This document shows positions 10,801-47,968 of a stretch of DNA of 64,000 nucleotides, piece after piece; the first letter of the stretch is position 1, and the number at the start of each line of letters is the position of its first letter. The notes under the pieces were generated by a model. The model was given only the letters and a program-made list of their open reading frames with translations, had not been told where the DNA came from and did no database searches. This DNA comes from Cristatella mucedo (lineage: Eukaryota > Bryozoa > Phylactolaemata > Cristatellidae), in NCBI GenBank assembly GCA_009760855.2, contig WPIO01000023.1, forward strand, positions 251,001-315,000. The letters are read 5' to 3'. A program made the translations under genes and the position numbers.

Positions 10801-13800
10801 TGGTACGCTGCATTGCTTTGTATCCGGCTCTAAGATGTGTCCGCCGTTGGCCAGTGTTAAACCCCTGTCGTTGATAAAAGCAGTCAGCAGCTGAGTAGCA
10901 CACAACCGAAGCACCTTGCTTTTCAGACACGAGTAGGCAGCAACTGTTCGGTGTTTGATCCTATTCGTGGCATACGTTACGACCTGTCATCCCTTCGTAA
11001 AGACACTGGCCACTACAGTATGACGGTGGGAAAGTACACGTATTTGGTCAACATATGTGGTGGAATCGGTGTTGGCGGTGCCACTGGAAGTGGCCTGTGC
11101 AGTGCCTCGACCGGTGTGTGCCAGAAGTCGACAGCCGGTACCGGCTTCGATGCTGGTAAGTGCCCCTGCCTCACTCACTCTCTTCTCTCCTCTCCTCTCC
11201 TCTCCTCTCCTCTCCTCTCCTCTCCTCTCCTCTCCCTCCCTCCCTCCCTCTCTCTCCCCCGGCTCTGTGCTGTCACTCTAAATTCGGCTGCCAGCTCACT
11301 TCGATCGGCAGACCCACGAGCTGTTTGGGTCGCGATGCTTTCTGTGTGGCGATGTCCTGTAGCTAGTTGCCTGCTGGAATGAAACATTCGGGAAGCCCGA
11401 GCCGAGTGACTCGCTGTCTGCATGCCCGGTTCGTCGAGTTCCACCGTGGCCGTTAGGAGCATCGAGAGGAAACTGTTCGAGTGGCTGTGCACAGAGAGCA
11501 CGAAAGCTGGCTCTGAGCAAAGTCACCTGCCCTTCCTCCAGAGCCAGCACCGAAGCAGCAGCTCGTGCGGTTTCTTTTCGGGCCAAGCAAACGGTCGTCG
11601 CTGCTGCTGCTGCGCTGCCGCCTCGACCGCGTGCACCGATGCGGCTTCGTCGTACGCGCGGTGCTAGGCCTCGCCAGACGCGACCGTCAGCCGGTGCGCT
11701 CTCGTGCAGAGCCATTCGTCGCGCCGAGTGCAGTTGCCCTCGTGGCAGCTGCTGCTGCAGCGGCCCTCCGTGCGCCGTCCTCGCTGCCGGCGTGCCGACC
11801 GGCGGGCAGATGGAGGCTCGCTGGCAGCGAGCACCACGAGCGCTGCTGCTATACGCGCTGCCCGTGCAGCTGCCAGGGTGGCAGCCTTGCCTAGTGGAGC
11901 AGCCGGGGACAGTGTGCCTTGTCGTTCATGCACGCGTCTCAGGCTGCCGTCGTCCGAACAGTACGGCCGAGCTCAATGTATGGGTACTTTAGCCAGCAGG
12001 CAGGCAGGCAGCCTGCCTGTCTGCCTGCCTGCAATAAGCTGGTGTGGTCGACTGTGGCAGCTCAGCTGGCTGCTAGCGCTGTCTAGGGGGGGGTGCTGCA
12101 AGCTAGCTGTAGTTGGTTGGTCGTGTTGGCTTGCAACCCCCTTGCCGATCGGCATTCGAGTGTTTGTTTGGCCCTGCATTTGGCAACATGCACAGATTCT
12201 TGTCGTGATGATGGCTAAACCAGTGTTCGACATGTATTTACGCCTGAGCTCACTGGCCGGGCAGAACTCCAGGCAGATCTCTGCTCCGGTGGTTGAACGT
12301 GTATATGTGTGCCTGTATTTCAGCATGCTAGTGTGTCAATTACTCGCCAAAGCCACGAAGACTAAGTGGGTTTTACATTGGAGTTTTATATAGGGAACTC
12401 AAACCTAAATCCACATTCTGTGCACACGCGTTAGCCATTGGACTTTGTCTTACTTGCCATCGAGAAAGTGAGAGGCTGAGTCAGGAGTGCAGTTGGGGAT
12501 AGTTTGAAAGTAGCAGCTCAGGACGGCTGGAAATTACACACCTGAACCGGTATCAGTAGTGAAGATAGCGTTTCGGGACAAGCGGATTTGACAGACTAAG
12601 ACTGCAGAGCAAGCATTTCCACCACTGAAGGTTTTAATTAAGTGAAAGAATGTGGCAGCTAATTGGTTGACCTGAAAGGACCTGGGGGACATGACTGGTT
12701 GAAACTGGTGCTATAGTTCAGCTGAGTATACAGGACCCAATCCGTGCCTTGTGGGTCAGAGCAAGAACTTGCTCTGTATCCGTTGATCAACCTTAGGCCA
12801 TCACTGTTCCTGTAGCAAAGTAGCCAGGTGATTGGCTTTCTTGGAATTCTTGACCAGCCTTGCAGTCATACGAATCTTTCTAGAGATTGACCTCGGCCTC
12901 ACTAAGGTCACCCTATTTAGACTTGCTTCCTGTACACATCGGCATCCTCTGCCGACATCCTTCAGGCAAGCACATCTTTTGTTGCTTCTTGTGCGAGTAG
13001 GCCTCTGCCTACCCGTGGATAGTTATTGTTGGGCACCTTATCTACTTCAAGGGTGAGATTTCCCTGGCCTCAGGCAGCGACACTGCTCTATGTTAAACGC
13101 GTGCCACCAGCCTGGGGGTCGGCTCTGCAGTCACTGGTCTTTTCTTAAATTTGTTATTGTTGACCTTTCTTATTCGGCCTTGTGTGAAGGCATCCTTACC
13201 GTGAACATGCCGGAAAGGCTCCTGATCGCACAATGGTGCAAGGTTTCTGCTCCAGTAATTTCATTGGCACACACAGTAGCAAAGAAGAAAGAGCGAGACA
13301 ATGACTATCAACTACAGAGGGATGGACAGGGGAAGAGAATTGACGGAGCGGAGTGGAGTTGAGCCTCTGCGAGGCTTGCAATGGGACAAAGGTTGGAGGC
13401 AGCTGAATGGGTAAAGCCTGAGTTGACATGCCTTGCTATCATTGATAGAACTACTCGGCTGTAGGGCACTAGAGCTACATCGATGTTGACATCTGACAAA
13501 GAGCTTGGTGATGAACTAGAAAAGGAAACACGGTTGGCATCATGCCAGGCGTGTAGTAAATAAGGAGCTGGTTGCATTGGATAGAAGTATAAATAAGGAG
13601 CTGGTTGCATTGGATAGAAGTAGAGAGCGGTGCCGCGACGAACCAGTGGCCATGGGAGAACGATGTGCTTGGCATGCAAAATCCAGCATGTCACCGGTTC
13701 CTACGTGGCAGCAAAGAAACAGATAGTCGCCCCCCCCCCCCTTGTGCTGAGCCCTCTGCCCACAATCAACTTCTGACCTGCTCTTGGCATAGCACCGCCT

Positions 13801-18904: not shown

Positions 18905-21900
18905 CATATGTATATTTGTTTGTGTGTATGTATACTTTTTAAATAATGTACATGTGTATATATTGCCTTGGTATTAGAATCAAGCAAGTGGCATGCCCTC
19001 GTGATGCGATTCAGCACTACACATTTATATCATGTAGTGGTATGCCATGCTGGTAGTACAGCCGTTGATGCTCGGCGTTGGTGCATGGGCTGCCATTAGA
19101 AGCTGCCACTGGTGCTGCTGACCGATCAGCTGCCGAAACATGAAATAGGCATGGCAACTGGCCCATGCGGTCCATTGAGCAGCTGTTCACTGCTGTCGTA
19201 TTGTCGTCTACCCCGTGGCCCTGGCTACCACGAGCTACCCCAATGCATTCGAGCTTAGCGGAGGTGCTACCGCCAGCCTTGGCTTGGCAGAGCAGGCTGC
19301 TGGCCATCGTGCCAATGTTGTATGAATGCACCGTCGGTAGTTTCGAAGCTCTTTGACCTTTAGGCTGCTGTTGCAGCTTCGGTTGGCACATCCCTAGCTG
19401 TTGAATCTTGGCCGAACGTTGTCTAGCGTTCATTTCTTCTCTGCTTCAAGGACAGGCCAACGGTGAACTGACTTTGGAGGGTGGCCTGCTGAAGCTGAAC
19501 TACACTGGTGGCAGCCGGTGCCGAAGCGGCCCTGTGCGGTCCACCGTGCTGGCGTTTGTCTGCGCTCCCACGATCAGCGGCACTCAGGGGCCCGTCTTTG
19601 CCAACGAGACCTCGTGCCAGTACTGGTTCGAGTGGTACACGAGCGCAGCTTGCGCCGTGCGTGAGACCGCCTGCTCCTTCAGGTACGCCCTCGCTGGCCT
19701 CTCCTTCCCCTGTGAGGGACTTTCTGCACCGTGCACCGTCTGCTTTACCTGTGCAATGACTGCATCCAGCTGGCTGGTTCCATGCGCCATTTGCAAGCAC
19801 AAAATAGTAGGCTGAGATGCAGCGCTTGTTGCGGTCGTCGCTCCATCGTGGCCTGCCACCTCCTGCTGCTCCTGCCGCCAATGCTGCCTGCATGCTTCCC
19901 TTTGCAGGCTGACAAATGGTAGTGTGTACGATCTCAGTGCGTTGACACTACCCTCATCCAACTACGTCATCGATGCGTCGACGACAGAAAACAGGACCTA
20001 CTACATAAACGTATGCAGGAATCTCATACATGCCGACGGCGTCGGATGTGCTGCTGATGCTGCTGCGTGCTACCGGGACGGCAGCACTAATACGTATGTA
20101 GAGAGCAGCGCGTTCATTCGGTTTACCGTCGTGGCATTTGTGCATGATGTGCCTCCTAGTGCTTGTGCTCCCCCACCGCTGCCTGCGGTGCAGTGGAATT
20201 GCTATGCCAGAACGAGGAGCGCCTGTATTCCTTTGTTCGGTCTCCTATGCCCTATTCCGCTTGGAGATTATTTCAAAGTTTCCTCCTGTACCTGAGCTGT
20301 TTTTCTAGCTGTGGAGCGATGCCGACTCGTGGAGCGTGCTGATTTTGTGCCGTATGTGTTCAGGGCATCCTTTTCAGCTTGTACATTGCCTGTGAGTGGT
20401 CTCTGCATGGCTAGGTTTCGTACTCAGGCAAACGATTGTCTACGATGTGCCATTAGAAACCCGCGGAGCTTGACCTTGCCTTCACCCTTCGTCTGGGCGT
20501 GGCTCGTAATGCTCGGCTCGGGTTTTGGTGTGTAGACACAAACACAGTCTCATTCTTGCGTTCCAACGTGCCCTGCCCAGCCTGTGGTTTTCAAGTAAGT
20601 CGGTAGGGAGATTGCTTGTATCTGCTAGAATGTGCGTGACTCACCTCGTCACTTTAGTGCTTGCGCACGTGGGTGAGCATGCACCAGTCCGCTCATCCGT
20701 GGGTCTCCATCGGTAACCCCTGTGTCAAAATTAACTGTCCACTTTGTTTCTCCAAGAGTGGTCCTCTTGCAGAGCTAAGACAAGTAGGCACCTCGGAAGT
20801 AGGAGGCTCGTAGTGTATTACAAAGACACCTAGCATTGAAGAGCAGCAGCTGGGGGGGTCGGCTGCCATGATTCGACACAGAGGTATCAGGTATGGGGAA
20901 TGTGATACCTTGGCAACAGCTCTGACAATGTGCAGCCCAGCACTGCCAGCAGCTCACTACTCGTGGAACTCAAAAAAATGTAATGAAAGCTAATTGTTTA
21001 GGCCAGTCTTGGTATCGAGTTACCAGTGCAGCTAGTCTGAATGAATCGCTGAGGACAATTCAAAAGACTATGCCCATTGGGTGTCATCGTGCCAGGAGTG
21101 CTGGTACCTTGGACCATACTGCTCTGACATTGTGGAAAAACATTCAGTGGTCTACATAGCATGTAGGATCGTGCTTACCACAGGATCTGGTCCTACAACC
21201 CCGTGTGGCAACCCCATAACGTTAGCCACTCTGCCTCTGGCCTTGCCTGTCGAGCCCTTAAGTAAGATGCCAAGCAAACTAATCAAGTTAGCGATCCGAT
21301 AATGCATGCGACACAACATGCGGTCCATAGCACTGGACTTGATGTCTTTCCATGTCTCTACCACGGAGCATCTTACTGCAGTGGGTTGACGGTATTTGTT
21401 TCACCTTAGGTTCGTCAACACCGGCAGAATTAGCCATGTTGTTCCTGTGAAGAATCTTTTTGGTGAAGTGCCTGTACTCGAGTATGATCACGGTGACGTA
21501 TGCCTATATGACAGGTCCAGAAAATTCATAACCCACATAATGGTATTGTGCGATCCAAGCAAAGAGGTAAGAAGCCGTAAGCAGTCCAACGGCCACCCTT
21601 GGCCCTAACTTTGACCTTTGCCAGAACTGGCAATAATCAAATGCATGTGGCTGGCGCCCAGCAGGTGGGCAGCACTAGCTATTGCCATTCTGAATTATGC
21701 CCTCGTGTTTACTTATCTGTGTGTCTTACCCATGTACTTTCAGTGGTGGTGAGTCCCATTAGTTGTATGCGTGTTCCGTGTAGGGACAACAAATTAGCTG
21801 TTCCATTGCTCCACTCAAGACCGTTAGCAACAGAAGCTTTTGCTCTGCAGGTCCTAGACTGTAGAACTCACTTCCACAATTCTTGCAAAACAACATATAC

Positions 21901-36600: not shown

Positions 36601-39600
36601 AATAAAGTCATGTCTGCTATTGTAAATTTGTAAAATAAGTCCATGTTTAAACCGAAGTCAATCAATACCTCTGATCAAGTGGGACATAACTAAGCACTTT
36701 TTCAGTGCTCTAGTAACTCCACTGCTGCAACTGACTTGCGATGCATTGCTCAAGAAGATCTTCCCCATGCCTTGTCACACAGAGCTGACCTGTTCCACAT
36801 CTGTGCCCATGTCGAGGATTTGTATGCATGCTATGCATCTAGCTCATTTTGCCCCTTTTTTGGGTGGCAAATAAGGGATCAGTATTTATTAGGCTTGTGC
36901 AGATTATGCCTCTGGTTTTAAGCAGTGTTGTAAAATCAAATGAAGCCAGTTTGGAGGTTGTTACTAGGGCTGCATCAAATAGTTGACTTTTGCTATTTGG
37001 CCAAATACGAATAATTGACCAACTACTCTGCCAAATACGAGTGGTTTATAGAACAGGTTAACGACAGCATTCTAATTTAAAATGCAAGCAAACGCTTCAG
37101 TTTAGTAAGTTTAACATGTAAACTAAATATGAACATTTAACATAATAATTATGCACATACATGTAAATGAAAGGGTTACCTCAGTCCACTCGCTGTGGAA
37201 ACCGAATATACCGAAATAGATTCACATGACCACTATTTTTAATCGGTCCGATGGCCTCTATTCGGCCGAATACCGAATAACTATTGTGCCCACTACTCGG
37301 CCCCAAAGAAAATATTGAAGTGAATGTTTAGTACAGCTCTAGTTGTTACCGAGTGACATAATAAATTTAGTATGTACTCCGAATCGTCAGCAAACCAGAT
37401 TGTGCAGACGAATTAAGCTTGAAGGAGAACTTCTTCTGTAGCCCACTACATTCTAGGCTCTGTGTATGCAAGCAGAATAACAAACAGGATTGTTTACGTG
37501 CAAGACAAATCTAAAAGGGCATAATCGAAAAATGATTCACAAAAAATAAAAATAAAAAGCAGACAGGTTGCCCATCTAATACTTATGCTGTTTCTGTAGT
37601 CTTTTTTCCATTCTTGCTTGTTACAGTACCTAGATGGCTCTTAGTTTTTCCTTGAGATTATGCACAAATGTACCTATTCGTTCATGTGTGGACATATGTT
37701 GTAGTTGATGCAGACTGTTTGATTTATTGGAGGGTTACAGTTATCAATACACCTATTGGTGTTAGGAATGTATTTTTAGGAGCACCAGAGAACCTTGTAT
37801 ATTGCATAGAGTTATGTAGAGCAGGTTGGTATTGGCTTGGGTCAGTTATCCGTATGGATCATTTTGTGTTGCATTTTAGCCCACAGCCAATCCAGGAAGG
37901 ACAAGATTCGGATACTTACATCTACCTGATTATGCTGAACGGGATTACACCAACCTCCAGCAGTTTGTTTCCTAGTGAGCTGAAGAATAAACTCGGTCGA
38001 TGTGTAGATCTGCCTACAGTCGTTTGTATGATCAACATCAAGGATCAGTCCATTCCTGCAGAGCCTGTTGGATTGCTTGGCCAGAGGAAGTTATATCTTA
38101 AAGGTTGGGAAGTAGACCTTTCTGCGTATTCCATTTGCATGTGCTGTCGTCTACAGTTGCATTTCACAGCTGAAGTGCAGTTTTGCTGTATTTGCTCGCT
38201 AGATTGTGCTTTTCTCCACAGACGGCTTACTGCAAGCTGTGATTGGTGCCAACACAATTTGCGAGCAGTCCGGTCGTCCTGTGGAGAGCATCATAGACTT
38301 CCATTGCGACCACACACTCCCTGAGGGACGCATCCGGTTTACTTACAAATCCAGTGCTTGTCAATATATCTTTGATTGGTACACCCCAGCCGTATGTGAA
38401 GATATAAATTCGTAAGTTGTGCTGTTTCGGAGCTATCCTCTGACAACCATCTGCTGGGCTTTTTAATTAATGTCCTGTGTGTTGTGAAATCCGTGTGCCT
38501 TTACTACTGCCTGGCTGTTCAAGTCCGAAAACTCCCATGACTAGCACCCATGCTGAGGATTAAGCTATGCTCGAGAATTTGGCAATGCTCCCAGCACCGT
38601 GATCTTAATAGCTCAGGCTATCGTCGTGTATCTCTTGTCTATGGATGGCTCTTCCTTAGACCTCTTGTGTTCCAGTGGCCGGTTCGCCTAGCCGGCAGCT
38701 GTCGATGTGTCATGCTTCCTTGCTTTCGAGGATCTACAGAAGTGGTTGGCGACACAGTCAAAGACTCTTTTTGTTACACGTCCAATCGAACGAGCAAATT
38801 TCAGTCGGGATTAGTGTAAGCAACTTCACGTAAACAGTGCTAATGCAAGTGCATAACGCTAATTCAGTATTGCCTGGACTACCGAGAAAAGCTATTGAGC
38901 ATCTGCAGCTGGCAACGATGTACATTGCTGGAGGTTACGTCAAAAAATCCCATAGGTTGAGCCAGGTCTCTCCTGTTCTGAAGGAGTGATGGTGGCTTCC
39001 GATCGATAAATAAATACAAAGCAAAATTTTTGCTTTGACCCACAAGGGCCATCCTTATTGCTTGGAGCTGCTACATTGGAGTTTTCTATAGCACATAAGC
39101 CGCCTGGTCGGCCTTTCTGTGCATATAATAGCCAATTAAATTTATTTCACACTCTAAAGAGTAAATAATGAGCCGTGCTGAGTAATGAGGACAACTGAGG
39201 ATATGGGTAGCTTAGGAGTAGCTGCACGGTGGGCAGCTGAAAAGGATGTGTCGGTGCCTCAAAGCCGGGAGAGATGTCGTTTCGAGTTGTGAAAGTGATC
39301 TTCGCATGAGTCTAGGACTCATAGAGTAAAGCGTTTGTCACCGAAAGTCTTTAAATGGAAGACTTGTACATCAAATTTATTGTAGAAACCATTGAAGCAG
39401 TTCAGCTATGTATGAGGAGGCCCAAGCCGTGGTGGATCCTCGGGTCCAAGTAACAATGTATTCTGTATCTGTTGATCAACAATAGCAATTGCGTCGTCTT
39501 TAGAAAATGTAAAGGCTAACCAGTGGCCATATTCATTGCTAACTGTAGCAGCTTTGTAGCATTTTATAGGCTTGCCAATGTAATGTAATGTAAGGTATCT

Positions 39601-41705
39601 CCGTCAGTAACTCCACAAAGTCATAAAGACCATGTGGGTGTTACGAAGGAGAGTTTTGTATAGCGCACTCACAGCCTAAGCGGCTTTCGGTACGCATTCG
39701 GTAGCCAACAGACTTCGTCTCACGCAACAAAGAGAAAGTGGGAAGCATAGCAGAGTCAGGAGAGCAGTTGAGGTAGTGAGTAGCATAGCAGTAGCAGTTC
39801 AGGACCGCTGAAAAAGATGTGCCATAGTCGGCAGTTGGAGAGTAGATGTCGTTGCGTAAGAGTTTTGGAAGCGAGTTCCACAGCCTAGGACCTGCAGAGC
39901 TAAAGCTTCTGTCTCCAACTGTCTTTAAGCGGAGGAATGGGACAGCTAATTTATTGTCCACACAGGACCTGAGGGCGCGAACAGACTGAGTTTCAGCAGT
40001 CTAGCTTAAAGAAAACCTGATATCTAGTAAGATCTTTAGCAGCCTACTAGGGGCTGTTATAAGTAGTCCTTAATCCTTGATGGGAGCTGGAAATTAGTAG
40101 GTGAGGCGGTCTTCCGATTAAAACTTTTAAACGTCAAGCAGCGGACAAAGTATGCCTGAATTACAAGTACTCAATTGTTTTCATACTAGGTCGCCTCCAA
40201 TTAGGGGGGCACAGTCATGTATTCTTGCCGTGCGTGCAGGGTTTCCTATGATAAGTACAGCTGGTTTTCGTCTGCACTCAAGTGATTTCCGGAGTGCCGT
40301 GGTCTCGCTTGAGCTCCACGACGATTGGCCATCCGGTTAGCCTTTTTTTAAGTACATATATAAGGTGATTCGTTCCAAGTCCTACAAGTCGTTTCACAGA
40401 TGATACCTTCCCCTCCAGCCGATTTAATCGCAATCTGCTGTATCATTTCTATGCAGATGACTCTCTGGTCTACCTTTGTTTTCTACTAGTATTTTAATTT
40501 TGGGTTTTCGTGTGAGCATGATTGATGATATGTAATCAGTTCTAAAATGATATATTGTATATTAGTGCTGATGGTGCAATCCAGATTCCTTGCTATTGCC
40601 TGAAAAGGACAGTTAATCTAACAGAAAGGGTGTAACCAGTAATGCTTTGCATAAGCACAGAATCAGCCTGCCGGACGGTGTCGGCAATTCCAATGCCGTT
40701 TTAAAACAGAGTATCCGTGGCTGTCTGACAATGCATGGCTCTACGATCTGCATAAAAAATACCATACGAGACCATGCTGCCTATGCCGATCTGATGGATG
40801 CATGTTACTCTTATACTGATGCACGTTCTTCAGTTATTTTTGATACCTTTTATCAGAGAATGGCTAGTCTTAGCTGTTGTAGAGCATCCACTGCAAATGT
40901 ATAAAGATCTTATCTCTGAGCTGGGCTAGATGGCTAACCTTTTTGTGTTGCCATCTAGGTACCATCTGTTATAGGTGTTCTCAATACGAATGCTGCTTTG
41001 TTACTGCAGACTCTGATGACGCGCAGCCCTGCCTTGTGATGGAGGGCCAGTTTCAGAATTTCGCTTCTGAACGATCTGGCTGTTTTTCTTTCACTGAGGC
41101 TTATGGCATCAATTGCTTATGTATTAGTAGTCACCACCACTCAAATGGTTTGCTCTCACCTGCCACCTCATCAAATCTGTTTTGCTTCCTGTAGTGAAAG
41201 TACTAACGTTGTTCCTTATGGACCAACGCAGCTGCCTGTCCTTGGGCATTCCTTGACCGCCGGTTCCATTGTGGGCATAGTCATTTCGGCTGCAGCCATA
41301 ATAGCAGCAGTAACTACGTTTGGCGTTATCAAGCTGAAGCGTCGAAGGTTAGTTTGGACTACTGGCAGCAGCAGCCTCAATTGCAGTACTGTATTTGTGT
41401 GTAACTGCTGATGACATGTCAATGCCACGCATTCCTTTAAAGAGATTTACTGTTGCCCGGCTCAACAACTTCTGCAAACTATGGCTCCGAATCATCCATT
41501 GGGTACTCTCAGGTTTGTGTTTCATGCTGCTAAAGGTTTTGGTAGATTGCTGCACGTAGCCTAATCCAAATTAAGCAGCTAATTGGCGATGATGGCATGT
41601 TTTCAGCTTCAGTCTTCAGAAGACCAGCCGAGCCTTCTGGGTGGCAGTCAGCTTCTGGGTTCTTTGCAGTATAATGACGACAGCGACGAGGATCTGATAG
41701 TTTGA
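1408..41705 (+). CDS. IGF2R: Cation-independent mannose-6-phosphate receptor homologue (spliced, 5' incomplete)
   Basis: Multi-exon type I membrane receptor; the family carries mannose-6-phosphate-tagged hydrolases from the trans-Golgi network to endosomes. The exons encode about nine tandem MRH repeats with the family pattern: a G..C..R..(I/V).F.C block, a CxYxFxWxTxxAC block, then (Y/F)DLSxL and YxxxVC....C. One transmembrane segment (exon 41195-41347) and a short tail ending DDSDEDLIV follow. Exon phases agree at every junction from 1408 to 38411; 40190-41120 is less certain. The human protein has 15 repeats, so the N-terminal repeats and signal peptide should lie left of the window. No fibronectin type II insert was seen. 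Introns are long and repeat-rich, and one contains a GPCR gene. A CD-MPR or another single-MRH lectin is excluded by the tandem repeats. Very sure of the family, moderately sure of the last MRH exons. Confidence 0.93.
3984..4830 (+). mobile_element. CR1/L2-like LINE 3' end (family A) with ATT tail
   Basis: Decayed reverse transcriptase C-terminus in two frames. The first has SAYFQLHNIAKIR, RLDFCNSLLAGLP and LHWLPIKQRIDF; after a frameshift, near 4316-4660, come HAFSSYAPKAWNSLP and AFEKKLKAHLF. The 3' end carries AAGTGCCTAGAGAGAGAGATT and then (ATT)n at 4801-4829. It is 5'-truncated. Confidence 0.9.
5090..5410 (+). mobile_element. LINE family A fragment
   Basis: A short, heavily mutated copy of the RT C-terminal region: CAGTTGGTGCAAAGCTAGGC near 5144, then a Leu/Ile-rich remnant matching the segment at 4260-4400. 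Many stops. Confidence 0.5.
5685..6690 (+). mobile_element. CR1/L2-like LINE fragment (family B)
   Basis: It begins at a degenerate RT catalytic box (FYANGTQLYLSF, where active elements have ADD). It continues with FLKLNDDKTVLLL and LGWLPVDKQIQSKVL, and ends with SSAGPRLWNSLPQFL and CGSSFSAVL. Frameshifts and stops lie in between. This is the longest RT remnant in the window. Confidence 0.88.
6840..7500 (+). mobile_element. Heavily decayed LINE family B copy
   Basis: Order and short words match the 5760-6540 element: GGATGTCGG with a Lys-rich stretch near 6895-6950, QLSIDQWIWNKTLALT near 7155 and LAELMHQFHP near 7230. No open frame. Confidence 0.55.
9232..9309 (+). CDS. IGF2R: CI-MPR exon: repeat A, CxYxFxW block
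   Basis: A 26-codon exon with acceptor TTTTAAG and donor AAG|GTAAGT, phase 0 at both ends. It encodes GCEYTFYWNTPQAC, a textbook MRH core. No glutamate precedes the first cysteine, so this repeat probably does not bind mannose-6-phosphate. A 7.6-kb intron separates it from the previous exon. Confidence 0.9.
9830..10460 (-). mobile_element. LINE RT fragment, minus strand
   Basis: NFLRLNDAKINLLVMG (10435 downward) is followed by LHWLLIKPQIDF and a diverged C-terminus ending near 9830, in the same order as the plus-strand elements. It lies in the intron between the repeat A exons at 9232 and 10927. Confidence 0.82.
10927..11155 (+). CDS. IGF2R: CI-MPR exon: repeat A, C-terminal half
   Basis: Acceptor CTTTTCAG, donor G|GTAAGT; phase 0 in, phase 1 out. 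It encodes the YDLSSL block, a YLVNICGG strand and the closing GVCQ. That CQ supplies the glutamine which, in MPR structures, contacts ligand together with the following repeat. Confidence 0.92.
11180..11250. repeat. (CTCCT)n microsatellite
   Basis: 5-bp unit, about 10 clean copies grading into CTCCC runs, directly after the donor of exon 10927-11155. Confidence 0.95.
11997..12032. repeat. CAGG/CCTG inverted repeat
   Basis: GCAGGCAGGCAGGCAG is followed directly by its near-complement CTGCCTGTCTGCCTGCCTGC, giving a long hairpin with almost no loop. Confidence 0.9.
12430..12800 (-). mobile_element. LINE family B 3' fragment
   Basis: On the minus strand it resembles the SFSAVL..CYF region of family B (TAGCAGCTCAGGACGGCTGG near 12510). 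The motif GTATCCGTTGATCAACC near 12777 recurs near 34249. Confidence 0.6.
13558..13622. repeat. 33-bp tandem duplication
   Basis: Two copies of a 32-bp block starting AAATAAGGAGCTGGTTGC, identical by eye, separated by one base. It lies inside a decayed minus-strand LINE remnant. Confidence 0.95.
13868..14013 (-). mobile_element. tRNA-derived SINE, family 1
   Basis: Read on the minus strand: an A-box-like TAGCCCAGTGGTTGAGG, a B-box-like region (mutated, near GACTTGAGCCCC), then a 3' tail GTGAAGCACCTGAGTAGAGAT and AGTTCTCTTAGGGCGCT, which is the LINE family A tail. Confidence 0.8.
14820..15117 (+). promoter_or_regulatory. Probable GPCR promoter/5' leader
   Basis: A locally GC-rich stretch immediately upstream of the GPCR ATG, with GC-box-like runs (TTGGGCGG near 14856, CCCCGCC near 14882) and several CpGs. 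No clear TATA box at a defined distance. It lies inside a receptor intron, so it would be an internal promoter. Confidence 0.35.
15118..15515 (+). CDS. GPCR exon 1 (N-terminus to TM3)
   Basis: It ends ...MYISIY plus two bases of the DRY-equivalent Arg codon; donor CAG|GTACGTTTC. It covers the N-terminus, TM1, TM2 and TM3. Loop 1 ends at SGRWPF, and the conserved Cys of TM3 is in DAVCTF. Confidence 0.93.
15118..17852 (+). CDS. Class A (rhodopsin-like) GPCR, two exons, orphan
   Basis: Exons 15118-15515 and 17174-17852 join in phase 2 (CAG|GTACGT ... TTCCTAG|G) to give 358 aa. The ATG at 15118 precedes a short N-terminus with an NYS glycosylation site. Seven hydrophobic segments are present with the family landmarks: GN in TM1, LAVTD in TM2, Cys at the top of TM3 paired with CDP in loop 2, FCWCP in TM6 and NSAINPVLY in TM7. 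The DRY position reads IYR. TM7 has the Trp/Tyr pair typical of amine receptors (WLSYANS), but TM3 has Thr at 3.32 instead of Asp, so a biogenic amine ligand is unlikely. There is no Lys at the retinal position, so it is not an opsin. Intracellular loop 3 is short, and the tail has a possible palmitoylated Cys (RRMCGL). The ligand and orthologue are unknown to me. Confidence 0.93.
15516..17173 (+). other. GPCR intron
   Basis: Canonical ends, GTACGT and CCTAG. It contains the GT microsatellite 16751-16816. I saw nothing else, and no conserved frame. Confidence 0.85.
16751..16816. repeat. (GT)n microsatellite
   Basis: Uninterrupted dinucleotide, about 33 units, in the GPCR intron. Confidence 0.99.
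17174..17852 (+). CDS. GPCR exon 2 (loop 2 to C-terminus)
   Basis: Starts after CTTTTTCCTAG with the last base of the split Arg codon, then FVCINDPL. It covers TM4 to TM7 and a tail of about 50 residues, ending at TAG 17850-17852. The 1.66-kb intron contains a long GT microsatellite. Confidence 0.93.
17853..19450. other. GPCR 3' flank and remaining receptor intron
   Basis: TATAAAT and CATAAAT near 18008-18036 might serve as variant polyadenylation signals, but no exact AATAAA stands out. Otherwise a GA-rich stretch (18690-18750) and the TG/TA repeat at 18785-18960. Confidence 0.45.
18785..18960. repeat. Compound (TG)n/(TA)n repeat
   Basis: Pure TG at about 18851-18901, flanked by mixed TATG/TGTA units. 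Confidence 0.95.
19451..19682 (+). CDS. IGF2R: CI-MPR exon: repeat B, predicted ligand-binding half
   Basis: Acceptor TTCAAG, donor CAG|GTACGC; phase 1 in, phase 2 out. It contains GGSRCRSGPVRSTVLAFVC and NETSCQYWFEWYTSAAC. The Arg lies eight residues before the Cys and the Glu five before the Tyr, as in known mannose-6-phosphate sites. With the upstream CQ, all four ligand residues are present. The preceding intron contains the GPCR gene. Confidence 0.95.
19908..20093 (+). CDS. IGF2R: CI-MPR exon: repeat B, C-terminal half
   Basis: Acceptor TTTGCAG, donor TAC|GTATGT; phase 2 at both ends. It encodes YDLSAL, YYINVCRNL and AAACYRD. The closing residues are CY rather than CQ, so the next repeat lacks the ligand glutamine. 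The intron before it is only 225 bp. Confidence 0.93.
21410..21566 (+). CDS. IGF2R: CI-MPR exon: repeat C, first strands
   Basis: Acceptor CACCTTAG, donor GAG|GTAAGA; phase 2 in, phase 0 out. It encodes the LEYDHGDVC strand and the FITHIMVLC block. The ligand arginine is not in register. Confidence 0.82.
21770..22095 (+). mobile_element. LINE family B 3' end fragment
   Basis: DNKLAVPLL then FALQVLDC..HFHN and a CELKYVGYHMYTE-like region, matching the 6365-6640 element. Near its end a 34-bp unit (TGTATAACGTGCAC...) is tandemly duplicated at 22093-22160. Confidence 0.8.
22093..22160. repeat. 34-bp tandem duplication
   Basis: Two adjacent identical copies beginning TGTATAACGTGCACTTAG, at the 3' end of a LINE remnant. 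Confidence 0.95.
22702..22831 (+). CDS. IGF2R: CI-MPR exon: repeat C, CxxxFxW block
   Basis: Acceptor CATTGTAG, donor ACAG|GTCAGG; phase 0 in, phase 1 out. It encodes NKEDQCSVFLIWRHAVGC, an MRH core in which the usual Tyr is Val. It is the most diverged core among the well-placed exons. Phase fits both neighbours. Confidence 0.75.
23153..23272 (+). CDS. IGF2R: CI-MPR exon: repeat C, C-terminal half
   Basis: Acceptor TTGTATAG, donor G|GTAAGT; phase 1 at both ends. It encodes FDLNPLRNL and VYYLNLCGMNG. The repeat's last cysteine strand is completed by the exon at 26337. Confidence 0.9.
23376..23505 (+). mobile_element. tRNA-derived SINE, family 1
   Basis: Plus orientation: TGGCCCTGGGAAAGG (A box) ... 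GGTCGTGGGCTCGAGCCC (B box), then a tail with GATGTGGTTCTCTTTGG. Just downstream of exon 23153-23272. Confidence 0.72.
23925..24115 (+). mobile_element. Two LINE family A tails
   Basis: CCTAGAAAGAGATTTAGTTC and CGCTATACAAATTTATTATT near 23930-23985, and a second AATGTGAAGTGCCTAGAAAG near 24077. 5'-truncated ends with no coding part. Confidence 0.7.
24721..24792. repeat. (CT)n microsatellite
   Basis: Pure CT, about 36 units. Confidence 0.99.
25981..26240. repeat. GC-rich 15-bp minisatellite
   Basis: About 16-17 tandem copies of CCCTGGCCGGGACCG, almost identical except for a one-base insertion near 26116 and a variant unit (CCGTCCCGGCCCTGG) near 26139-26153. Because 15 is a multiple of three, long open frames appear in several frames on both strands; none is a gene. 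Confidence 0.98.
26337..26415 (+). CDS. IGF2R: CI-MPR exon: repeat C/D boundary
   Basis: A short exon with acceptor TTCGCAG and donor TGG|GTGAGT; phase 1 in, phase 2 out. It supplies ICIAPRGG, closing repeat C, and a Ser-rich linker into repeat D. It lies 97 bp downstream of the 15-bp minisatellite and 96 bp upstream of the next exon. Confidence 0.75.
26512..26707 (+). CDS. IGF2R: CI-MPR exon: repeat D, first half
   Basis: Acceptor CCGCCTTCAG, donor GCG|GTACGT; phase 2 in, phase 0 out. It encodes LDYDAGVLTMTY, SAVISFAC and DDCMFQFAWRTAYAC. Lys stands where the ligand Arg would be. Confidence 0.93.
27011..27247 (+). CDS. IGF2R: CI-MPR exon: repeat D, C-terminal half
   Basis: The acceptor GCGGCAG has a weak pyrimidine tract; the donor is CAG|GTCAGT. 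Phase 0 at both ends. It encodes LDLALLSRT, SYYVSVCRPLG and STVCSVD. Confidence 0.88.
27358..27504 (+). CDS. IGF2R: CI-MPR exon: repeat E, first strands
   Basis: Acceptor CGTACCAG, donor CTG|GTGAGT; phase 0 at both ends. It encodes SLGHVGSS, the IELRYSSSSTC strand and STTVVFRC. A CT-rich microsatellite begins about 120 bp into the following intron. Confidence 0.92.
27600..27760. repeat. CT-rich microsatellite
   Basis: Pure CT at about 27660-27702 within a longer pyrimidine-rich stretch, just inside a receptor intron. Confidence 0.95.
27880..28320 (+). mobile_element. LINE family A remnants and inverted tail
   Basis: RT C-terminal relic with a SLEFTASYSHNMQ-like WNSLP segment near 28150. It abuts a tail in the opposite orientation at about 28240-28320 (AAAGCGCCATCAGAGAACTC). 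Confidence 0.65.
28500..28850. mobile_element. Two LINE/SINE-type tails
   Basis: 28505-28580 minus orientation (TTGTATAGCACCCTGGAGAA with ATA repeats on the left); 28775-28845 plus orientation (AAGCACCTGCATAGAGATTAAG, then ATTATTATT). Confidence 0.7.
28850..29807. other. Receptor intron remainder, nothing recognised
   Basis: Unique-looking DNA up to the exon at 29808. No frame with MRH pattern and no repeat seen. Confidence 0.5.
29808..29990 (+). CDS. IGF2R: CI-MPR exon: repeat E, core and DLS block
   Basis: Acceptor GGCTGCAG, donor CAG|GTAGGT; phase 0 at both ends. It encodes GNPVLVSISSQCEYVFEW, TSAVC and FDLSVLRNL. No ligand Glu is present before the Cys. Confidence 0.93.
30244..30436 (+). 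CDS. IGF2R: CI-MPR exon: end of repeat E, start of F
   Basis: Acceptor CACGTCAG, donor G|GTAAGC; phase 0 in, phase 1 out. It encodes YVYKIGVCGK, the ATTCKELG turn and the IALQYPRTGQC strand. One exon bridges two repeats. Confidence 0.93.
30994..31243 (+). CDS. IGF2R: CI-MPR exon: repeat F, core
   Basis: Acceptor CACCCTAG, donor AC|GTGAGT; phase 1 in, phase 2 out. It encodes AQIIFEC, DQCSPLFVWKTPLAC and YDLLPLARS. The tyrosine of CxY is replaced by Pro. Confidence 0.93.
31553..31686 (+). CDS. IGF2R: CI-MPR exon: repeat F, C-terminal strand
   Basis: Acceptor CTTTTGCAG, donor G|GTAAGT; phase 2 in, phase 1 out. It encodes FYVNVCESIHL and then GVAVALNKSD. The usual closing cysteine is missing, so one disulphide of this repeat is probably lost. 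Confidence 0.88.
31687..33375. other. Receptor intron with one SINE
   Basis: Contains the family 2 SINE at 31798-31977 and GA-rich DNA at 32525-32575. The rest is unremarkable. Confidence 0.6.
31798..31977 (-). mobile_element. tRNA-derived SINE, family 2
   Basis: Minus strand: GTGAGCCGTGATGGCTCACT (A box region), then GGGTTCGAATCC (B box) and a family-specific tail containing GCTGTTAAATCAGC. It is related to the copies at 36376, 48105, 53535 and 60815. Confidence 0.88.
33376..33524 (+). CDS. IGF2R: CI-MPR exon: repeat G, first half
   Basis: Acceptor CGTTTTAG, donor ACC|GTAAGT; phase 1 in, phase 0 out. It encodes STFDC, ARIAFACG and the first half of the core, TCAYMFT, which continues as WSTHLVC in the next exon. 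Confidence 0.92.
33590..33665. repeat. (CA)n and (CT)n microsatellites
   Basis: Short CA-rich segment followed by pure CT at about 33638-33662. Confidence 0.95.
33845..34100 (-). mobile_element. LINE family B 3' end fragment
   Basis: Minus-strand LSLLPTAINSGRCFPAILRC and AIGYHLHTESRL match the family B C-terminus at 6480-6650. Confidence 0.75.
34285..34435 (+). mobile_element. tRNA-derived SINE, family 1 (diverged)
   Basis: GGGTAATGTGCTGAAC..TTGTGGGCTCGATCCC with tail GTAAAGCTCCTGGAAAAGAT, ending near a GTTC run. The B box is clear; the A box is weak. Confidence 0.6.
35281..35400 (-). mobile_element. LINE family A tail
   Basis: ATA/ATG-rich left end, then GGCACCCTAACAGAACTAAA and TATAGGCACTTCACG, the inverted LINE A tail. 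Confidence 0.65.
35633..35748 (+). CDS. IGF2R: CI-MPR exon: repeat G, core end and DLT block
   Basis: Acceptor CTCTTACAG, donor AT|GTATGT; phase 0 in, phase 2 out. It encodes WSTHLVC followed by MDLTSILSY. Confidence 0.9.
35805..35957. repeat. AT-only low-complexity tract
   Basis: About 150 bp almost entirely A and T with ATT/ATA units, abutting the 3' tail of a family 1 SINE. Probably an expanded SINE tail. Confidence 0.9.
35958..36105 (-). mobile_element. tRNA-derived SINE, family 1
   Basis: Minus strand: A box CCCAATGGTTAAGG, B box GGGCTTGAGCCC as seen on plus, tail AGAGATTAAGTTCTCTTAGG, ending in the AT tract. Confidence 0.85.
36376..36548 (-). mobile_element. tRNA-derived SINE, family 2
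   Basis: Best-preserved family 2 copy. Minus strand: CCGTGATGGCTCACTAGG, then CCGGGTTCGAATCC, a perfect Pol III B box (plus-strand 36483-36494), then a body with TGCAAGCAGTGGCG. Confidence 0.92.
36965..37341. mobile_element. hAT-type MITE with 8-bp target duplication
   Basis: 377 bp with imperfect terminal inverted repeats TAGGGCTGCA / TGTACAGCTCTA, flanked by perfect 8-bp duplications GTTGTTAC (36957-36964 and 37342-37349). No coding capacity. It contains repeated CGAATA/CCGAATA words. Confidence 0.88.
37880..38103 (+). CDS. IGF2R: CI-MPR exon: end of repeat G, start of H
   Basis: Acceptor GCATTTTAG, donor G|GTTGGG (weak); phase 2 in, phase 1 out. It encodes DTYIYLIMLNGI, GRCVDLPTVVCMI and a linker. 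In the strand usually written YxxNVC, the cysteine is replaced by leucine. Confidence 0.8.
38222..38411 (+). CDS. IGF2R: CI-MPR exon: repeat H, core
   Basis: Acceptor CTCCACAG, donor TC|GTAAGT; phase 1 in, phase 2 out. It encodes SIIDFHC and SACQYIFDWYTPAVC, a clear MRH core. No arginine is in ligand register. Confidence 0.93.
38412..40189. other. Receptor intron with LINE fragments
   Basis: It holds a plus-strand LINE remnant near 38870-39130, then a family B 3' part in minus orientation to about 39990. No exon seen. Confidence 0.6.
39577..39990 (-). mobile_element. LINE family B, recent 5'-truncated copy
   Basis: On the minus strand: MDNKLAVPFLRLKTVGDRSF and SSAGPRLWNSLPKLLRND stay in one open frame to [12 protein letters not shown]. 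The 3' end has an (ATTAC)n tail at 39577-39595. It is nearly identical to 54302-54590. Confidence 0.93.
40190..40335 (+). CDS. IGF2R: CI-MPR probable exon: repeat H, C-terminal half
   Basis: Acceptor CATACTAG, donor G|GTTAGC; phase 2 in matches the previous exon. It encodes SCILAVRAG and GFRLHSSDFRSAVVSLEL, a plausible (Y/F)DLS-type block. It ends in phase 1, which does not fit the next candidate exon, so the boundary or the exon itself may be wrong. Confidence 0.5.
40395..40500 (+). mobile_element. LINE RT catalytic-box fragment
   Basis: A small fragment encoding NLLYHFYADDSLVYL, the YADD box of a non-LTR reverse transcriptase, between two receptor exons. Intact catalytic Asp pair but only about 30 codons. 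Confidence 0.8.
40640..40878 (+). CDS. IGF2R: CI-MPR probable exon: end of repeat H, start of I
   Basis: An open frame with SIRGCLTMHGSTICIKN, like the closing strand of an MRH repeat, and then RSSVIFDTF, like the opening strand of the next. The acceptor is unclear and the suggested donor T|GTAGAG is weak; both ends are approximate. An RT fragment lies just upstream. Confidence 0.5.
40959..41120 (+). CDS. IGF2R: CI-MPR probable exon: repeat I, core
   Basis: Acceptor GCCATCTAG. The frame encodes QYECCFVTADSDD and ERSGCFSFTEAYGINC, a diverged MRH core lacking the Trp. The 3' end is uncertain because no GT donor gives the phase needed by the transmembrane exon. Confidence 0.55.
41195..41347 (+). 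CDS. IGF2R: CI-MPR exon: transmembrane segment
   Basis: Acceptor CTTCCTGTAG, donor AG|GTTAGT. It encodes a juxtamembrane stretch and then about 23 hydrophobic residues (from AGSIVGIVISAAAII), ended by the stop-transfer KLKRRR. This gives type I topology with the MRH repeats in the lumen. Confidence 0.9.
41443..41512 (+). CDS. IGF2R: CI-MPR exon: proximal cytoplasmic tail
   Basis: Acceptor CCTTTAAAG, donor CAG|GTTTGT; phase 2 in, phase 0 out. It encodes a Ser-rich stretch ending GYSQ. Joined to the next exon, this creates YSQL, a YxxPhi adaptor signal at the place where vertebrate CI-MPR has YSKV. Confidence 0.85.
41607..41705 (+). CDS. IGF2R: CI-MPR terminal exon: sorting signals and stop
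   Basis: Acceptor TGTTTTCAG; 32 codons plus TGA. It contains EDQPSLL, which fits [DE]xxxL[LI], and the C-terminus DDSDEDLIV. The latter matches the acidic-cluster DxxLL-type signal read by GGA adaptors in vertebrates, with Ile for the second Leu and Val at the very end. The tail totals about 60 residues against roughly 160 in human. Confidence 0.95.
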   Translation, partial: LQSSEDQPSLLGGSQLLGSLQYNDDSDEDLIV

Positions 41706-42165: not shown

Positions 42166-42171
42166 AATAAA
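42166..42171 (+). promoter_or_regulatory. Candidate polyadenylation signal for CI-MPR
   Basis: AATAAA about 460 bp after the receptor stop codon. It is the first exact hexamer I noticed downstream. No transcript evidence. Confidence 0.35.
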
Positions 42172-43560: not shown

Positions 43561-44139
43561 TTATTAGACATGCAGATGTGTTGCTAAGCGGTGGCCGCGA
43601 GAGGTGTCTGCTTTAGCATGCCGGCTTAAGTATGACGTCATTGCGAGCCATTTCCGCCGATACTGCATTAAACAGTATTTGATGAGACGGCTCGTAAAAA
43701 ATGCTCCAGCACATACTACAGCAACAGAAGATAGCAGATATTGCCACAGCAGAAGCTACCTCAGATTCTTCTGCAAAGTAAAAGCGCCAACATTGGCAGA
43801 CATGGATTTTGGATCGTGTACACACGCAGTGGAACTGAAGGTGCAGCACCTGGAATGACAAAACGAAAAAATGTCTGCTCAGCCCATTTTGCTGCGCCAG
43901 TGAGCAAGTTGTCATAAAAGGATCGAGATGCTAATTCTACGAATGTAGCTACCTGCATCCAATTTAATTTTAAAAAATCTCAATGAGGGCAAGCGTAAGC
44001 GATTAAAAGCAGCGGTTAAGTGGACGGGTTTTTATGCAGAATTGGTACTCTCAGCCAGCTTTTGAGCATGTTCTTATCAGCCCTAGAGGTGTAACGAAAA
44101 TTGATCCGGGGTAAATATCCGTTCGTAAATAAGTCTTGT

Positions 44140-44410
44140 CGCGCCTGCTTATTCATCTGAAATCCTTCCTAATCAGGCTTCGCATCGTACCACCAGCCTC
44201 TGACTCTGAGCGTCTCTGACTCTCAACCCCTCTGACTCTGGCCATATCCTTTGGAGATATCCATAGCTTTCTGTCCCTCTTGGCCTAAAGCTCGGAACTC
44301 ACTCCCGTCAGACATAATAAAAATAATAATAATGCACTTGGTAAAGCGCCCTCAGAGAACTCAATCTCTTCCTAGACGCTTTACATTAGCTGCAAAGGGA
44401 GGTCGTGACA
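44140..44410. mobile_element. LINE family A C-terminus and inverted tail
   Basis: A plus-strand relic (PKARNSLPSDI near 44270) meets a minus-orientation tail (TAATAATAATGCACTTGGTA, CTCAGAGAACTCAATCTC), the same arrangement as at 28150-28320. Confidence 0.7.
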
Positions 44411-46034
44411 TCCGTGACTTGACGGCCCTCTTAGGTAGAAACTAAAAGAAAAACATGCCACTCAGAGCCGAAATGCTCCATCGCCGAAACTTGTCCTTCG
44501 CGTGCTTACTCGTGCTAAAACTGCACTAATTGAGAATGTAATCACTTTCGCCAATTTCTCAAGCTGCCTTTCTAGCATATTTAAAGTGTGTACCTAGACA
44601 AAGATTTAGTTTTCTTAGGGTAATAGATAAATATTTGGTCATTATTACTATTGTTCTCATCTCCGATAGGCTATAAGAATAAGCAGCGAGAGTAATTACC
44701 AGAGTAATTACGGAACAGTGTAAATGCTAAAATAATCAGGTAATCCGGCTACCAGTGCCTACTCTGCTACTTACATCCGCCGGTGCTCATTTGGAAGTTT
44801 GTTGGTTGGAACAAGGCTCTAGAGTACGGGATTACCAGAAGATCGCTCCTTGGCGATGCACAACGGTGGGTCCTTGAAATTAAATATGTCTTTTTCGGCT
44901 TAATTTTCATAGCTGCTATACATCAAGGAGTTTCTAAATGCAGATCGACTGAAGACCGTCCATCGAGGTGTATCGAGTACCTGACCGGTCGGGACTACCG
45001 AGACTACAATTTCTGCGGTTCTCTATGCATGGCTTGAAGCAATGGTTTTAAATTTTCAATCGCGTGGTCGACCAGAATACCGGTGTTCCCGGACGACAAC
45101 TATGTACGCCAGCTACGGTCGACCATCAAAGACCATATCTACTACTCGGAGGTACACCGATCCTGGCAGGTGGGAATAACTCTCAAGAGCGCCCCCTGCA
45201 GCTGTGCTCGACACACCTGAATGTTTGAATACGCACATGGCAACCAGAGGCAGACACGACGGCTGCAAGTAAAACAAGCATTTTTAAAATAAAAAATGAT
45301 CGATGACTGTGGAACCGAATGCAAAATATTTCGCAAAATGCTAGAAACGATCTACAACCTCCCGAGTTAGCCTTGAACTCTCTCAGATTGAAACACCAGG
45401 ACTTAAACTTCTGCAGCATTCGACCCAGGACAAAAAAATAGGGCTTGAAATTTCTCACTTTGTACTCGAGCTGAATCCCCTACTACCTGACAGCAGTTCA
45501 GTGGCTAATGCCGACGGCCAACCGGAATGTTAGGCACATGATAACTGCCCCTCCCCTACGTTGTACTTTAAGCAGGTGCCAAAATGTTCATTTCGTTCAC
45601 AAGACCTCTACGTCTGACCGAATCGACAACTGGGACACGTACTTCACGATCCAGGTCGAGTCGAGTTCGAGTCTATCAGCAGACAATCCTTCGTTGCCCG
45701 CAGCACAAGGAGGGTGGGGTTGTGCTAAGCTCTTATGCTGCAATATAAAGCAGGCAGTTGAATCAGCTGACCTTTACTTGCCGACCTATATCGTGACCAC
45801 GAATAAAAAAAATGTGAGCAATATCTTATCAGCTAGCGGTATTGAACCCATTTCTTCGAATATCGGAAGCTAGTAAGCTCTCTTCGATTTAGAGAAGATG
45901 TTCAATTTGCCATGACAAATCTGCGTGAAGCACGAAACCGTCAACTCTTCATTTCGAAAAATTGTCGGCGAGAGTCCGACAGGCCACGCGCCCGATGGCT
46001 GAATGAAGCGATGTCGGAAGGGCTTAGCGGAAAG

Positions 46035-46787
46035 CTACACAAACTGCCTCAGGCAGCCAGCTTCTTCGCAACTGCTACAGCTACCGGCCAGAAGGAGGGC
46101 GGCATCCGCCGAGCTCGCGTGTTCGCAGGCCGCTTGGGGCGTGCGGCTAGCAGACCACAGCAGCGCCGGAGGCCCGAGATCCGAGGCGGGCTCGTCCTCG
46201 TAGCTCGAGTGGCACTTGACGCAGTGCTTAGATCTCGACGGGAAGTGCTGCCTCGGCAGCAGAAGGGCCAGCGCCACCACCAGGCGAGCTCTCCTCTCAT
46301 CCAGGCGCCGCTCCAGAGCGCTCTTGAGCCGCTCGGCGTCGATCGAGCGGAGCACCTCCCTCAGCCGAACGTAGTCATTCACGATGCAGGCGTCGCGGGC
46401 GATCCGACTGACCGCATCACTGTCCAGCGGGGACAGCTCAAGCGGTGGCGGCAGGGACGCTATGCGCTCGAAGGTGGGTGACGACGGCGGCCGAGGCACG
46501 GGCCGGTAGACTCTCGGCCTCGCCGAAAAATCGCACCCTGTGTGTGGCTCTCGCGGCGGCGGCGATCCCGAGCCGCCGCCGTTCACCCGTCGACCTGCCG
46601 TCGAGCGAGGCCCCTCACCTGCAGCGTCGGCTGCTTCGCCCTCCGGCGTGTAGCCGCGGGGCACCGGCACGTATGTTCGCGTGTCGGTGCGATCCGAGAA
46701 CGTCACCTTGTTCTTCTTCTTTCTTAGCCTGCTTCCGGAATCCGTACTGTCGAGGGAAGACGTGGACCGACGCTCCTCGGCGCTCAT
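46035..46787 (-). CDS. Unrecognised 250-aa protein with KVTF motif and CxxC
   Basis: A single 250-codon frame, strongly GC-rich and unlike the surrounding AT-richer DNA. The N-terminus has a Ser-rich stretch and then a basic cluster RKKKNKVTF, which fits the RVxF docking motif of PP1 regulators. Residues about 75-115 are Pro/Arg-rich. Residues about 120-175 look helical and charged (YVRLREVLRSIDAERL). Then follow a hydrophobic run, HCVKCHSSYE and a Cys-rich end. I do not recognise the family. The start is the first ATG and the frame is closed by a stop, but a good donor-like GCAG|GTGAGG lies inside near codon 55, so splicing cannot be excluded. It may also be only the first exon. Confidence 0.6.
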   Translation of the reverse strand: MSAEERRSTSSLDSTDSGSRLRKKKNKVTFSDRTDTRTYVPVPRGYTPEGEAADAAGEGPRSTAGRRVNGGGSGSPPPREPHTGCDFSARPRVYRPVPRPPSSPTFERIASLPPPLELSPLDSDAVSRIARDACIVNDYVRLREVLRSIDAERLKSALERRLDERRARLVVALALLLPRQHFPSRSKHCVKCHSSYEDEPASDLGPPALLWSASRTPQAACEHASSADAALLLAGSCSSCEEAGCLRQFV

Positions 46788-47056
46788 TTGCCGCCCCGCT
46801 GGCGGCGGAGGCGACAGCGTGAGACCGAGCTCGATACGGCCACGTCACATTATCTGGGCTGCTGTACGGCTCTTTCTGGCTAACGCATACATAGTAAACA
46901 GCTCTTCAGTGCCGCGCCACAAAGAGCCACCGGCGTGGCTAGCTGATTACCGCAGCCTCGAACAAAGCATGACGCCGTGGATGGCCGGAGCGCCGAATCG
47001 CCAGGTTAAGTAAATCGCTTTCATCTTCTATTGCTATATCTTGCTGCTGTTGCTGC

Positions 47057-47259
<203 letters not shown>

Positions 47260-47791: not shown

Positions 47792-47796
<5 letters not shown>

Positions 47797-47831
<35 letters not shown>

Positions 47832-47968
47832 CCTTTTTATAGCACCCAAAGAGAACGTAATCTCTATTCAGGTGCTTCACATATGCCACGGGGCTTGAGA
47901 CCACAACCTCTGCTAGATCTTGGTCGGGGGCTGCACCTTAACCACTGGACCAAACCAGCGCTGGCAAG
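47797..47968 (-). mobile_element. SINE family 1 with (TA)n tail
   Basis: Minus strand: GGTCCAGTGGTTAAGG (A box), a mutated B box, tail AGAGATTACGTTCTCTTTGG, then (TA)n at 47797-47829. Confidence 0.85.

What the first reader, a model, noticed from the sequence alone, without database searches (positions are those of the whole stretch)
41443..41705. CI-MPR tail keeps a near-vertebrate set of sorting signals in only about 60 residues
The joined terminal exons give YSQL, EDQPSLL and the C-terminus DDSDEDLIV. Vertebrate CI-MPR has a YSKV signal and an acidic-cluster DxxLL end read by GGAs and AP-1. Here the spacer between the signals is greatly shortened and the last signal is DEDLI rather than DEDLL. 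YSQL is made by an exon junction (GYSQ|LQ), so alternative splicing could remove it.
Basis: partly seen in the sequence, partly recalled or inferred. Interest (0 to 1): 0.72.

Follow-up and report, generated by a model that had tools for sequence, protein, structure and literature searches.

The report
Short sorting tail of lysosomal receptor
The stretch encodes the short cytoplasmic tail of what looks like an ordinary animal receptor that carries enzymes to lysosomes; it keeps two of the known address signals of its mammalian relative in a much shorter tail, a modest variation on a known system.

Summary
[quoted passage not shown] They encode one membrane span and a 61-residue tail ending DDSDEDLIV. 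YSQL aligns to bovine YSKV, 24 residues after KRRR/KERR in both. The end matches printed C-termini of human (DDSDEDLLHI) and mussel (DDSDEDLLA) CI-MPR except Leu to Ile. The same genome has one detected GGA gene with a VHS domain close to GGA1 and GGA3. The gene has about 15 repeats; repeats 3, 5 and 9 keep the recalled mannose 6-phosphate contacts. So this looks like an ordinary CI-MPR. DxxLI fits the published relaxed GGA pattern, and human sortilin has the same pair of signals. EDQPSLL is an AP-type dileucine, found in 27.5% of shuffles. The SNX-BAR retrieval motif of vertebrate CI-MPR is not met, though IGYSQ misses its upstream half by one residue. A tandem acceptor could delete only the tyrosine signal; no transcripts were available.

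The parts
37880..38103 (+). exon with N-terminal half of the last MRH repeat (repeat 15); start approximate
   Evidence: open frame ...PIQEGQDSD...LYLK running into a donor AAAG|GT; no family match of its own was sought
38222..38411 (+). exon with C-terminal half of MRH repeat 15
   Evidence: best PDB match CI-MPR chain 6um1, E 1.1e-36 over all repeats, best stretch 2227-2287 at 34.2 bits; Pfam CIMR 23.7 bits against cut-off 22.5
41195..41347 (+). exon with juxtamembrane segment, single membrane span and KLKRRR
   Evidence: splice borders and translation; aligned to the corresponding part of chain 6um1
41443..41512 (+). first tail exon, RDLLLPGSTTSANYGSESSIGYSQ (70 nt, not a multiple of 3)
   Evidence: splice borders; YSQ aligns to YSK of bovine YSKV
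41607..41705 (+). last coding exon: L of YSQL, acidic dileucine EDQPSLL, terminal DDSDEDLIV, TGA
   Evidence: translation; end compared with human and mussel CI-MPR in print
41607..41612 (+). CTTCAG, which ends in the second AG of a tandem acceptor; use of that site would delete LQ and turn YSQL into YSQS in frame
   Evidence: translations from three acceptors; use not shown
42166..42171 (+). AATAAA, probable polyadenylation signal of the gene
10978..11124 (+). N-half of MRH repeat 9 (numbered by order) ending in CQ
   Evidence: Pfam CIMR 26.0 bits for the frame that holds it
19480..19656 (+). C-half of MRH repeat 9 with R and E..Y of the sugar site
   Evidence: Pfam CIMR 36.6 bits for the frame that holds it

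Best explanation
The finding is the C-terminus of an apparently single-copy, full-length CI-MPR in an animal genome. Most likely the receptor binds mannose 6-phosphate-tagged enzymes in the Golgi through repeats 3, 5 and 9. Its terminal DDSDEDLIV is read by the VHS domain of GGA, and the receptor is loaded into clathrin carriers with AP-1; YSQL is read by the mu subunits of AP-1/AP-2 for carrier loading and for uptake from the cell surface. The tail is a compact version of the vertebrate one: the two anchor signals stay and the long middle is missing. Return from endosomes then probably does not rest on the vertebrate SNX-BAR motif as defined in print, but on AP-1, retromer, or a weaker form of that motif. 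Shown here: family of the gene, exon joins that keep frame, position of YSQL, presence of a GGA with a matching VHS domain. Inferred: sugar binding and every adaptor and trafficking step.
For: CI-MPR chain 6um1 (bovine, as I recall) is the best PDB hit and the last repeat the best stretch. phmmer aligns span and tail start with YSQL on YSKV; 24 residues from the K of KRRR or KERR to Tyr in both. Printed C-termini: human LVSFHDDSDEDLLHI, mussel ILNPFEDAGGYHDDSDEDLLA. The relaxed GGA pattern covers DEDLIV. The 10 genome matches to PF00878 at E <= 0.001 (15 candidates scored) all lie on C155 between 225270 and 282217. One place matches GGA_N-GAT; VHS exons joined by eye hit GGA1 (E 3.1e-49) and GGA3 (E 6.8e-47) chains and Pfam VHS at 104 bits. 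CQ is seen in repeats 3, 5 and 9 and in none of the five other N-halves that reach that position clearly (2, 6, 10, 11, 12); 3, 5 and 9 also keep R and E..Y.
Against: No transcript or protein data. The tail with its span but without repeat 15 finds nothing in PDB at E <= 10, so the YSQL/YSKV alignment leans on the repeat beside it (that stretch scores 18.9 bits). The strict DxxLL is absent, and the VHS stretch GKFRFLNEMIKMVSPKYYG differs from GGA1 at three places (L to M, V to M, L to Y) of unknown effect. The maker of the mannose 6-phosphate tag and CD-MPR could not be sought because the genome search machine did not answer.
Confidence: 0.85

Rival explanations
1. The Leu to Ile change means that the GGA signal is degenerate; AP-1 and AP-2, through YSQL and EDQPSLL, do the sorting, and the acidic cluster is a leftover or serves AP-1 or PACS.
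For: EDQPSLL fits [DE]xxxL[LI] and YSQL fits Yxx-hydrophobic; the strict DxxLL is absent.
Against: DDSDEDL is identical to human and mussel CI-MPR, which suggests constraint; the relaxed GGA pattern allows I; SorLA binds GGAs with MV.
Confidence: 0.15
2. YSQL is switched on and off by choice between tandem acceptors 6 nt apart (exon starts 41607 and 41613), giving a form taken up from the surface and one that is not.
For: TTTTCAG^CTTCAG^TCTTCAG; the +6 site is in frame and removes only LQ, giving YSQS.
Against: Extra AGs just after an acceptor are common by chance (general knowledge); the first AG follows the TTTT run directly; no transcript seen.
Confidence: 0.08
3. The true main tail is longer, with its last exon after 41705, and the exon here is a minor form.
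For: The vertebrate tail is longer: the 2499-residue chain has 134 residues after YSKV.
Against: The exon ends in the C-terminal signal itself, followed by a stop and AATAAA at 42166; that signal is at or near the C-terminus in human and, as far as the peptide shows, in mussel.
Confidence: 0.03

Closest known systems
[quoted passage not shown] human MPRI)
   Same: about 15 MRH repeats, one span, Yxx-hydrophobic at the same distance from KRRR/KERR, terminal DDSDEDL
   Different: 31 instead of 134 residues after the Y signal; DLIV instead of DLLHI; upstream half of the SNX-BAR motif not met; Lys where bovine repeat 15 has Glu
Mussel (Bathymodiolus japonicus) CI-MPR
   Same: an invertebrate CI-MPR whose antibody peptide, positions 2447-2467, ends GYHDDSDEDLLA
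   Different: keeps LL; only this peptide was seen, tail length unknown
Human sortilin tail
   Same: YSVL and HDDSDEDLL (823-831) in the cytoplasmic part. If Tyr 792 starts YSVL (recalled) it has 38 residues from Tyr to first Leu; here 32
   Different: VPS10 receptor, unrelated lumenal part
Drosophila LERP
   Same: invertebrate relative of CI-MPR with GGA and AP-1 signals, ending SDDDMLL
   Different: five lumenal repeats; mannose 6-phosphate contacts not conserved (abstract)

Membership tests
CI-MPR | tandem MRH (CIMR) repeats, about 15, in one gene | tested here: met
   10 PF00878 matches on C155 and none reported elsewhere, 15 candidates scored; with my half-domain profiles plus that search 14 C-halves were placed by order, some pieces weak (E 0.05-0.11), and the C-half belonging to the N-half at C155 270927 was not found, making 15 by inference. 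Profile rows with E above 0.2 were dropped
CI-MPR | best match to CI-MPR among solved MRH proteins | tested here: met
   CI-MPR/IGF2R chains are the first 15 of 17 PDB hits, followed by ERLEC1 (E 0.11) and OS-9 (E 1); no CD-MPR chain at E <= 10. LERP was not compared
CI-MPR | mannose 6-phosphate contacts Q, R, E, Y in repeats 3, 5, 9 | tested here: met
   CQ; R ahead of the I/L-x-F strand; E-x(2)-C/R-x-Y in all three. Which residues are contacts is recalled and was matched to the printed rows by eye
CI-MPR | sugar site in repeat 15 | tested here: inconclusive
   Glu of HETADCQY is Lys in YKSSACQY, and the N-half reads VVCM where the binding repeats read CQ; the site may be lost
CI-MPR | fibronectin type II insert in repeat 13 | tested here: inconclusive
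   the full crude pattern gave no match; its short core matched once, far upstream at C155 222371; no Pfam scan for it
CI-MPR | Yxx-hydrophobic signal near the membrane | tested here: met
GGA cargo signal (DxxLL type) | D-x-x-L-L at or near the C-terminus | tested here: not met
   strict LL absent; DxxLI present, which meets the relaxed published pattern
GGA cargo signal (DxxLL type) | binding to a GGA VHS domain | not testable with these tools
   a reader is present in the genome; binding not measured
SNX-BAR (ESCPE-1) cargo | aliphatic-X-[FY]-X-[RK] or aromatic-X-[FY], then a hydrophobic-X-hydrophobic triplet 3-15 residues on | tested here: not met
   neither form of the upstream half occurs in the 61 residues; bovine letters give YKY as control. 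Near miss: IGYSQ at 25-29 (Q for R/K). Loose triplets such as LQY at 49 do occur (consensus)

The most novel reading that the evidence does not exclude
This lineage runs a CI-MPR without a working SNX-BAR retrieval motif and with a terminal DxxLI matched by small changes in the GGA pocket region (L to M, V to M, L to Y), and it tunes surface uptake by a 6-nt tandem acceptor that erases YSQL. The tail would then be a minimal natural CI-MPR tail that separates forward sorting from the retrieval signal.
Probability: 0.06. Interest if true: 0.55.

Novelty: new member of a known kind. Interest (0 to 1): 0.24.

Why it matters
Whether retromer or SNX-BARs bring CI-MPR back to the Golgi has been disputed (stated in PMC7082075, passages). 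A natural CI-MPR that keeps the forward signals but lacks the SNX-BAR motif would be a useful comparison and could help date when that motif arose. Otherwise it is one more data point that a tyrosine signal and DDSDEDL- are an old core of the tail.

Tried and rejected
The span and tail alone find nothing in PDB at E <= 10 and no Pfam family at E <= 0.01; only with part of repeat 15 attached do they align. No relatives of the tail were collected: I ran no scan of the viral, metagenome or genome contig sets nor of the phage, plasmid and E. coli records, judging them unlikely to hold animal genes. The Sortilin_C locus was fetched to compare a second GGA cargo tail; it looks SorLA-like by eye (YWTD- and EGF-like sequence follows), and no convincing tail end was seen in the part searched, C685 465001-495100. 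I considered CD-MPR or a LERP-type receptor because of the tail length; the repeat count and the three sugar sites speak against both. The organism was not identified. Genome searches for CD-MPR (PF02157), the phosphotransferase (PF18440), all VHS domains (PF00790) and other DDSDEDL-coding places did not complete. Paper searches aimed at invertebrate CI-MPR tails were (of the hits of 18 and 67 only the listings were seen); they gave the mussel peptide and LERP, so I cannot say how common short tails are. Searches were for GGA, SNX-BAR and SorLA signals.

Full report
What is there. The window is bases 251001-315000 of contig C155 in a 572-Mb genome. The 10 matches of the CI-MPR repeat family in that genome at E <= 0.001 (15 candidates scored) all lie on this contig between 225270 and 282217, so the receptor gene starts upstream of the window and ends inside it; the organism was not identified. 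The exon at 38222-38411 matches CI-MPR chain 6um1 best (E 1.1e-36 over all repeats; bovine, as I recall), and its best stretch is the last repeat, 2227-2287, at 34.2 bits. Behind it, exons 41195-41347, 41443-41512 and 41607-41705 join in one frame. They give a juxtamembrane segment, one membrane span and a 61-residue tail: KLKRRRDLLLPGSTTSANYGSESSIGYSQLQSSEDQPSLLGGSQLLGSLQYNDDSDEDLIV. The frame stops at 41705, and AATAAA stands at 42166.

Signals. Three patterns are present: YSQL; DQPSLL of the type [DE]xxxL[LI]; and DEDLI of the type Dxx[LIMV][LIMV] at the end; the strict DxxLL is absent. In 200,000 shuffles of the tail a Yxx-hydrophobic occurred in 53.5%, at the exact position in 1.1%; the terminal GGA-like pattern in 2.0%; the AP-type dileucine in 27.5%; all three somewhere in 0.39%. 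HMMER aligned span and tail start to chain 6um1 with YSQL on YSKV; there is a one-residue gap just before KRRR/KERR and none from there on. That stretch scores 18.9 bits and includes the end of repeat 15; span and tail alone give no hit. From the K of KRRR or KERR to the Tyr there are 24 residues in both. After the signal the 2499-residue chain has 134 residues, if it is complete, and this tail 31.

The end. Human CI-MPR ends LVSFHDDSDEDLLHI (table passage, PMC4130503). The mussel antibody peptide reads ILNPFEDAGGYHDDSDEDLLA (passage, PMC10446485). The present end, YNDDSDEDLIV, shares DDSDEDL and differs in the second hydrophobic residue. A published search for GGA cargoes used D..[LIMV][LIMV] within three residues of the end, and D..[LI][LI] within twenty; by its authors' words it recovered most known human type I cargoes, and it found LERP (passages, PMC3127973). 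SorLA binds GGA1 and GGA2 with DDVPMVIA (passages, PMC5357279). So Leu to Ile is within the known range. EDQPSLL has its acid at -4 and belongs to the AP-1/AP-2 type (canonical forms as in PMC6345817, one passage).

The reader of the signal. A GGA_N-GAT match exists at one place, C11:8310947-8311042. Four upstream exons, joined by eye, give a VHS domain that matches GGA1 (E 3.1e-49) and GGA3 (E 6.8e-47) chains; the sets include entries 1jpl and 1jwg, which I recall as complexes with CI-MPR peptide. The blocks GKFRFLNE, SPK and AYxMLKxQGI, which I recall as holding the peptide pocket, are unchanged. Three nearby positions differ from GGA1 (NEL to NEM, IKV to IKM, KYL to KYY). Whether these touch the Leu/Ile position was not determined.

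The lumenal part. Half-domain profiles and the Pfam hits place 14 C-halves by order, and one N-half (C155 270927) has no C-half found, so 15 repeats by inference. The CQ of the sugar site is seen in repeats 3, 5 and 9; repeats 2, 6, 10, 11 and 12 read L, L, Y, F or L, and S after that Cys, repeat 7 is unclear, and the N-halves of 1, 4, 8, 13 and 14 were not examined for it. Repeats 3, 5 and 9 also keep the Arg and the Glu/Tyr pair; they are the mannose 6-phosphate binding repeats of vertebrates (recalled). In repeat 15 the Glu position is Lys and the N-half reads VVCM, so that site may be lost. A crude pattern found no full type II fibronectin insert.

What is missing. Binding of vertebrate CI-MPR to SNX5/6 needs a bipartite motif: a hydrophobic/aromatic stretch, then WLM or a like triplet (passages, PMC7082075). 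Neither form of the upstream half occurs in the 61 residues, while the bovine letters give YKY; the tail has no Trp. But IGYSQ misses the first form by one residue, and LQY further on would pass as a loose triplet. This receptor may therefore return from endosomes in another way, or by a weak form of the same motif. With one tail in hand, loss here cannot be told from later gain in vertebrates.

Splicing. Skipping the 70-nt exon shifts the frame and ends the protein at ...KLKRRSFSLQKTSRAFWVAVSFWVLCSIMTTATRI; keeping the intron after the span exon ends it at ...KRRRLVWTTGSSSLNCSTVFVCNC. The last junction has three AGs close together; the second, 6 nt downstream, is in frame and would turn YSQL into YSQS while keeping the other signals; the third shifts the frame.

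Verdict.

Noticed in passing
window 15049-15534 and 16956-17849, + strand: Two open frames of a rhodopsin-family GPCR (7tm_1, 64.6 and 82.8 bits) lie between the two halves of CI-MPR repeat 9, on the same strand: probably a nested gene.
   Followed up: partly
window 41597-41620: Tandem acceptor TTTTCAG^CTTCAG^TCTTCAG at the last intron; the +6 site is in frame and removes LQ.
   Followed up: partly
window 38221-38400: Repeat 15 has Lys where the bovine repeat has the Glu that I take for the sugar-binding one.
   Followed up: partly
window 44000-64000: AT skew changes sign at about 44 kb, suggesting genes on the other strand beyond the receptor; open frame 46038-46844 (-) has no Pfam match at E <= 0.1.
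   Followed up: no
window 6104-6658 (+) and 54354-54770 (-): Open frames that look by eye like pieces of non-LTR retrotransposon reverse transcriptase.
   Followed up: no
L020-L022, contig C685 about 484800-495100, - strand: SorLA-like gene: Sortilin_C match followed by YWTD- and EGF-like sequence; the only Sortilin_C match reported for the genome.
   Followed up: partly
C155 238598-238863, 240852-241125, 244082-246045; window 1494-9303 and 27400-29882: Several MRH repeats seem split by an intron at a similar place in the C-half (by eye), as expected if an already split repeat was duplicated.
   Followed up: no
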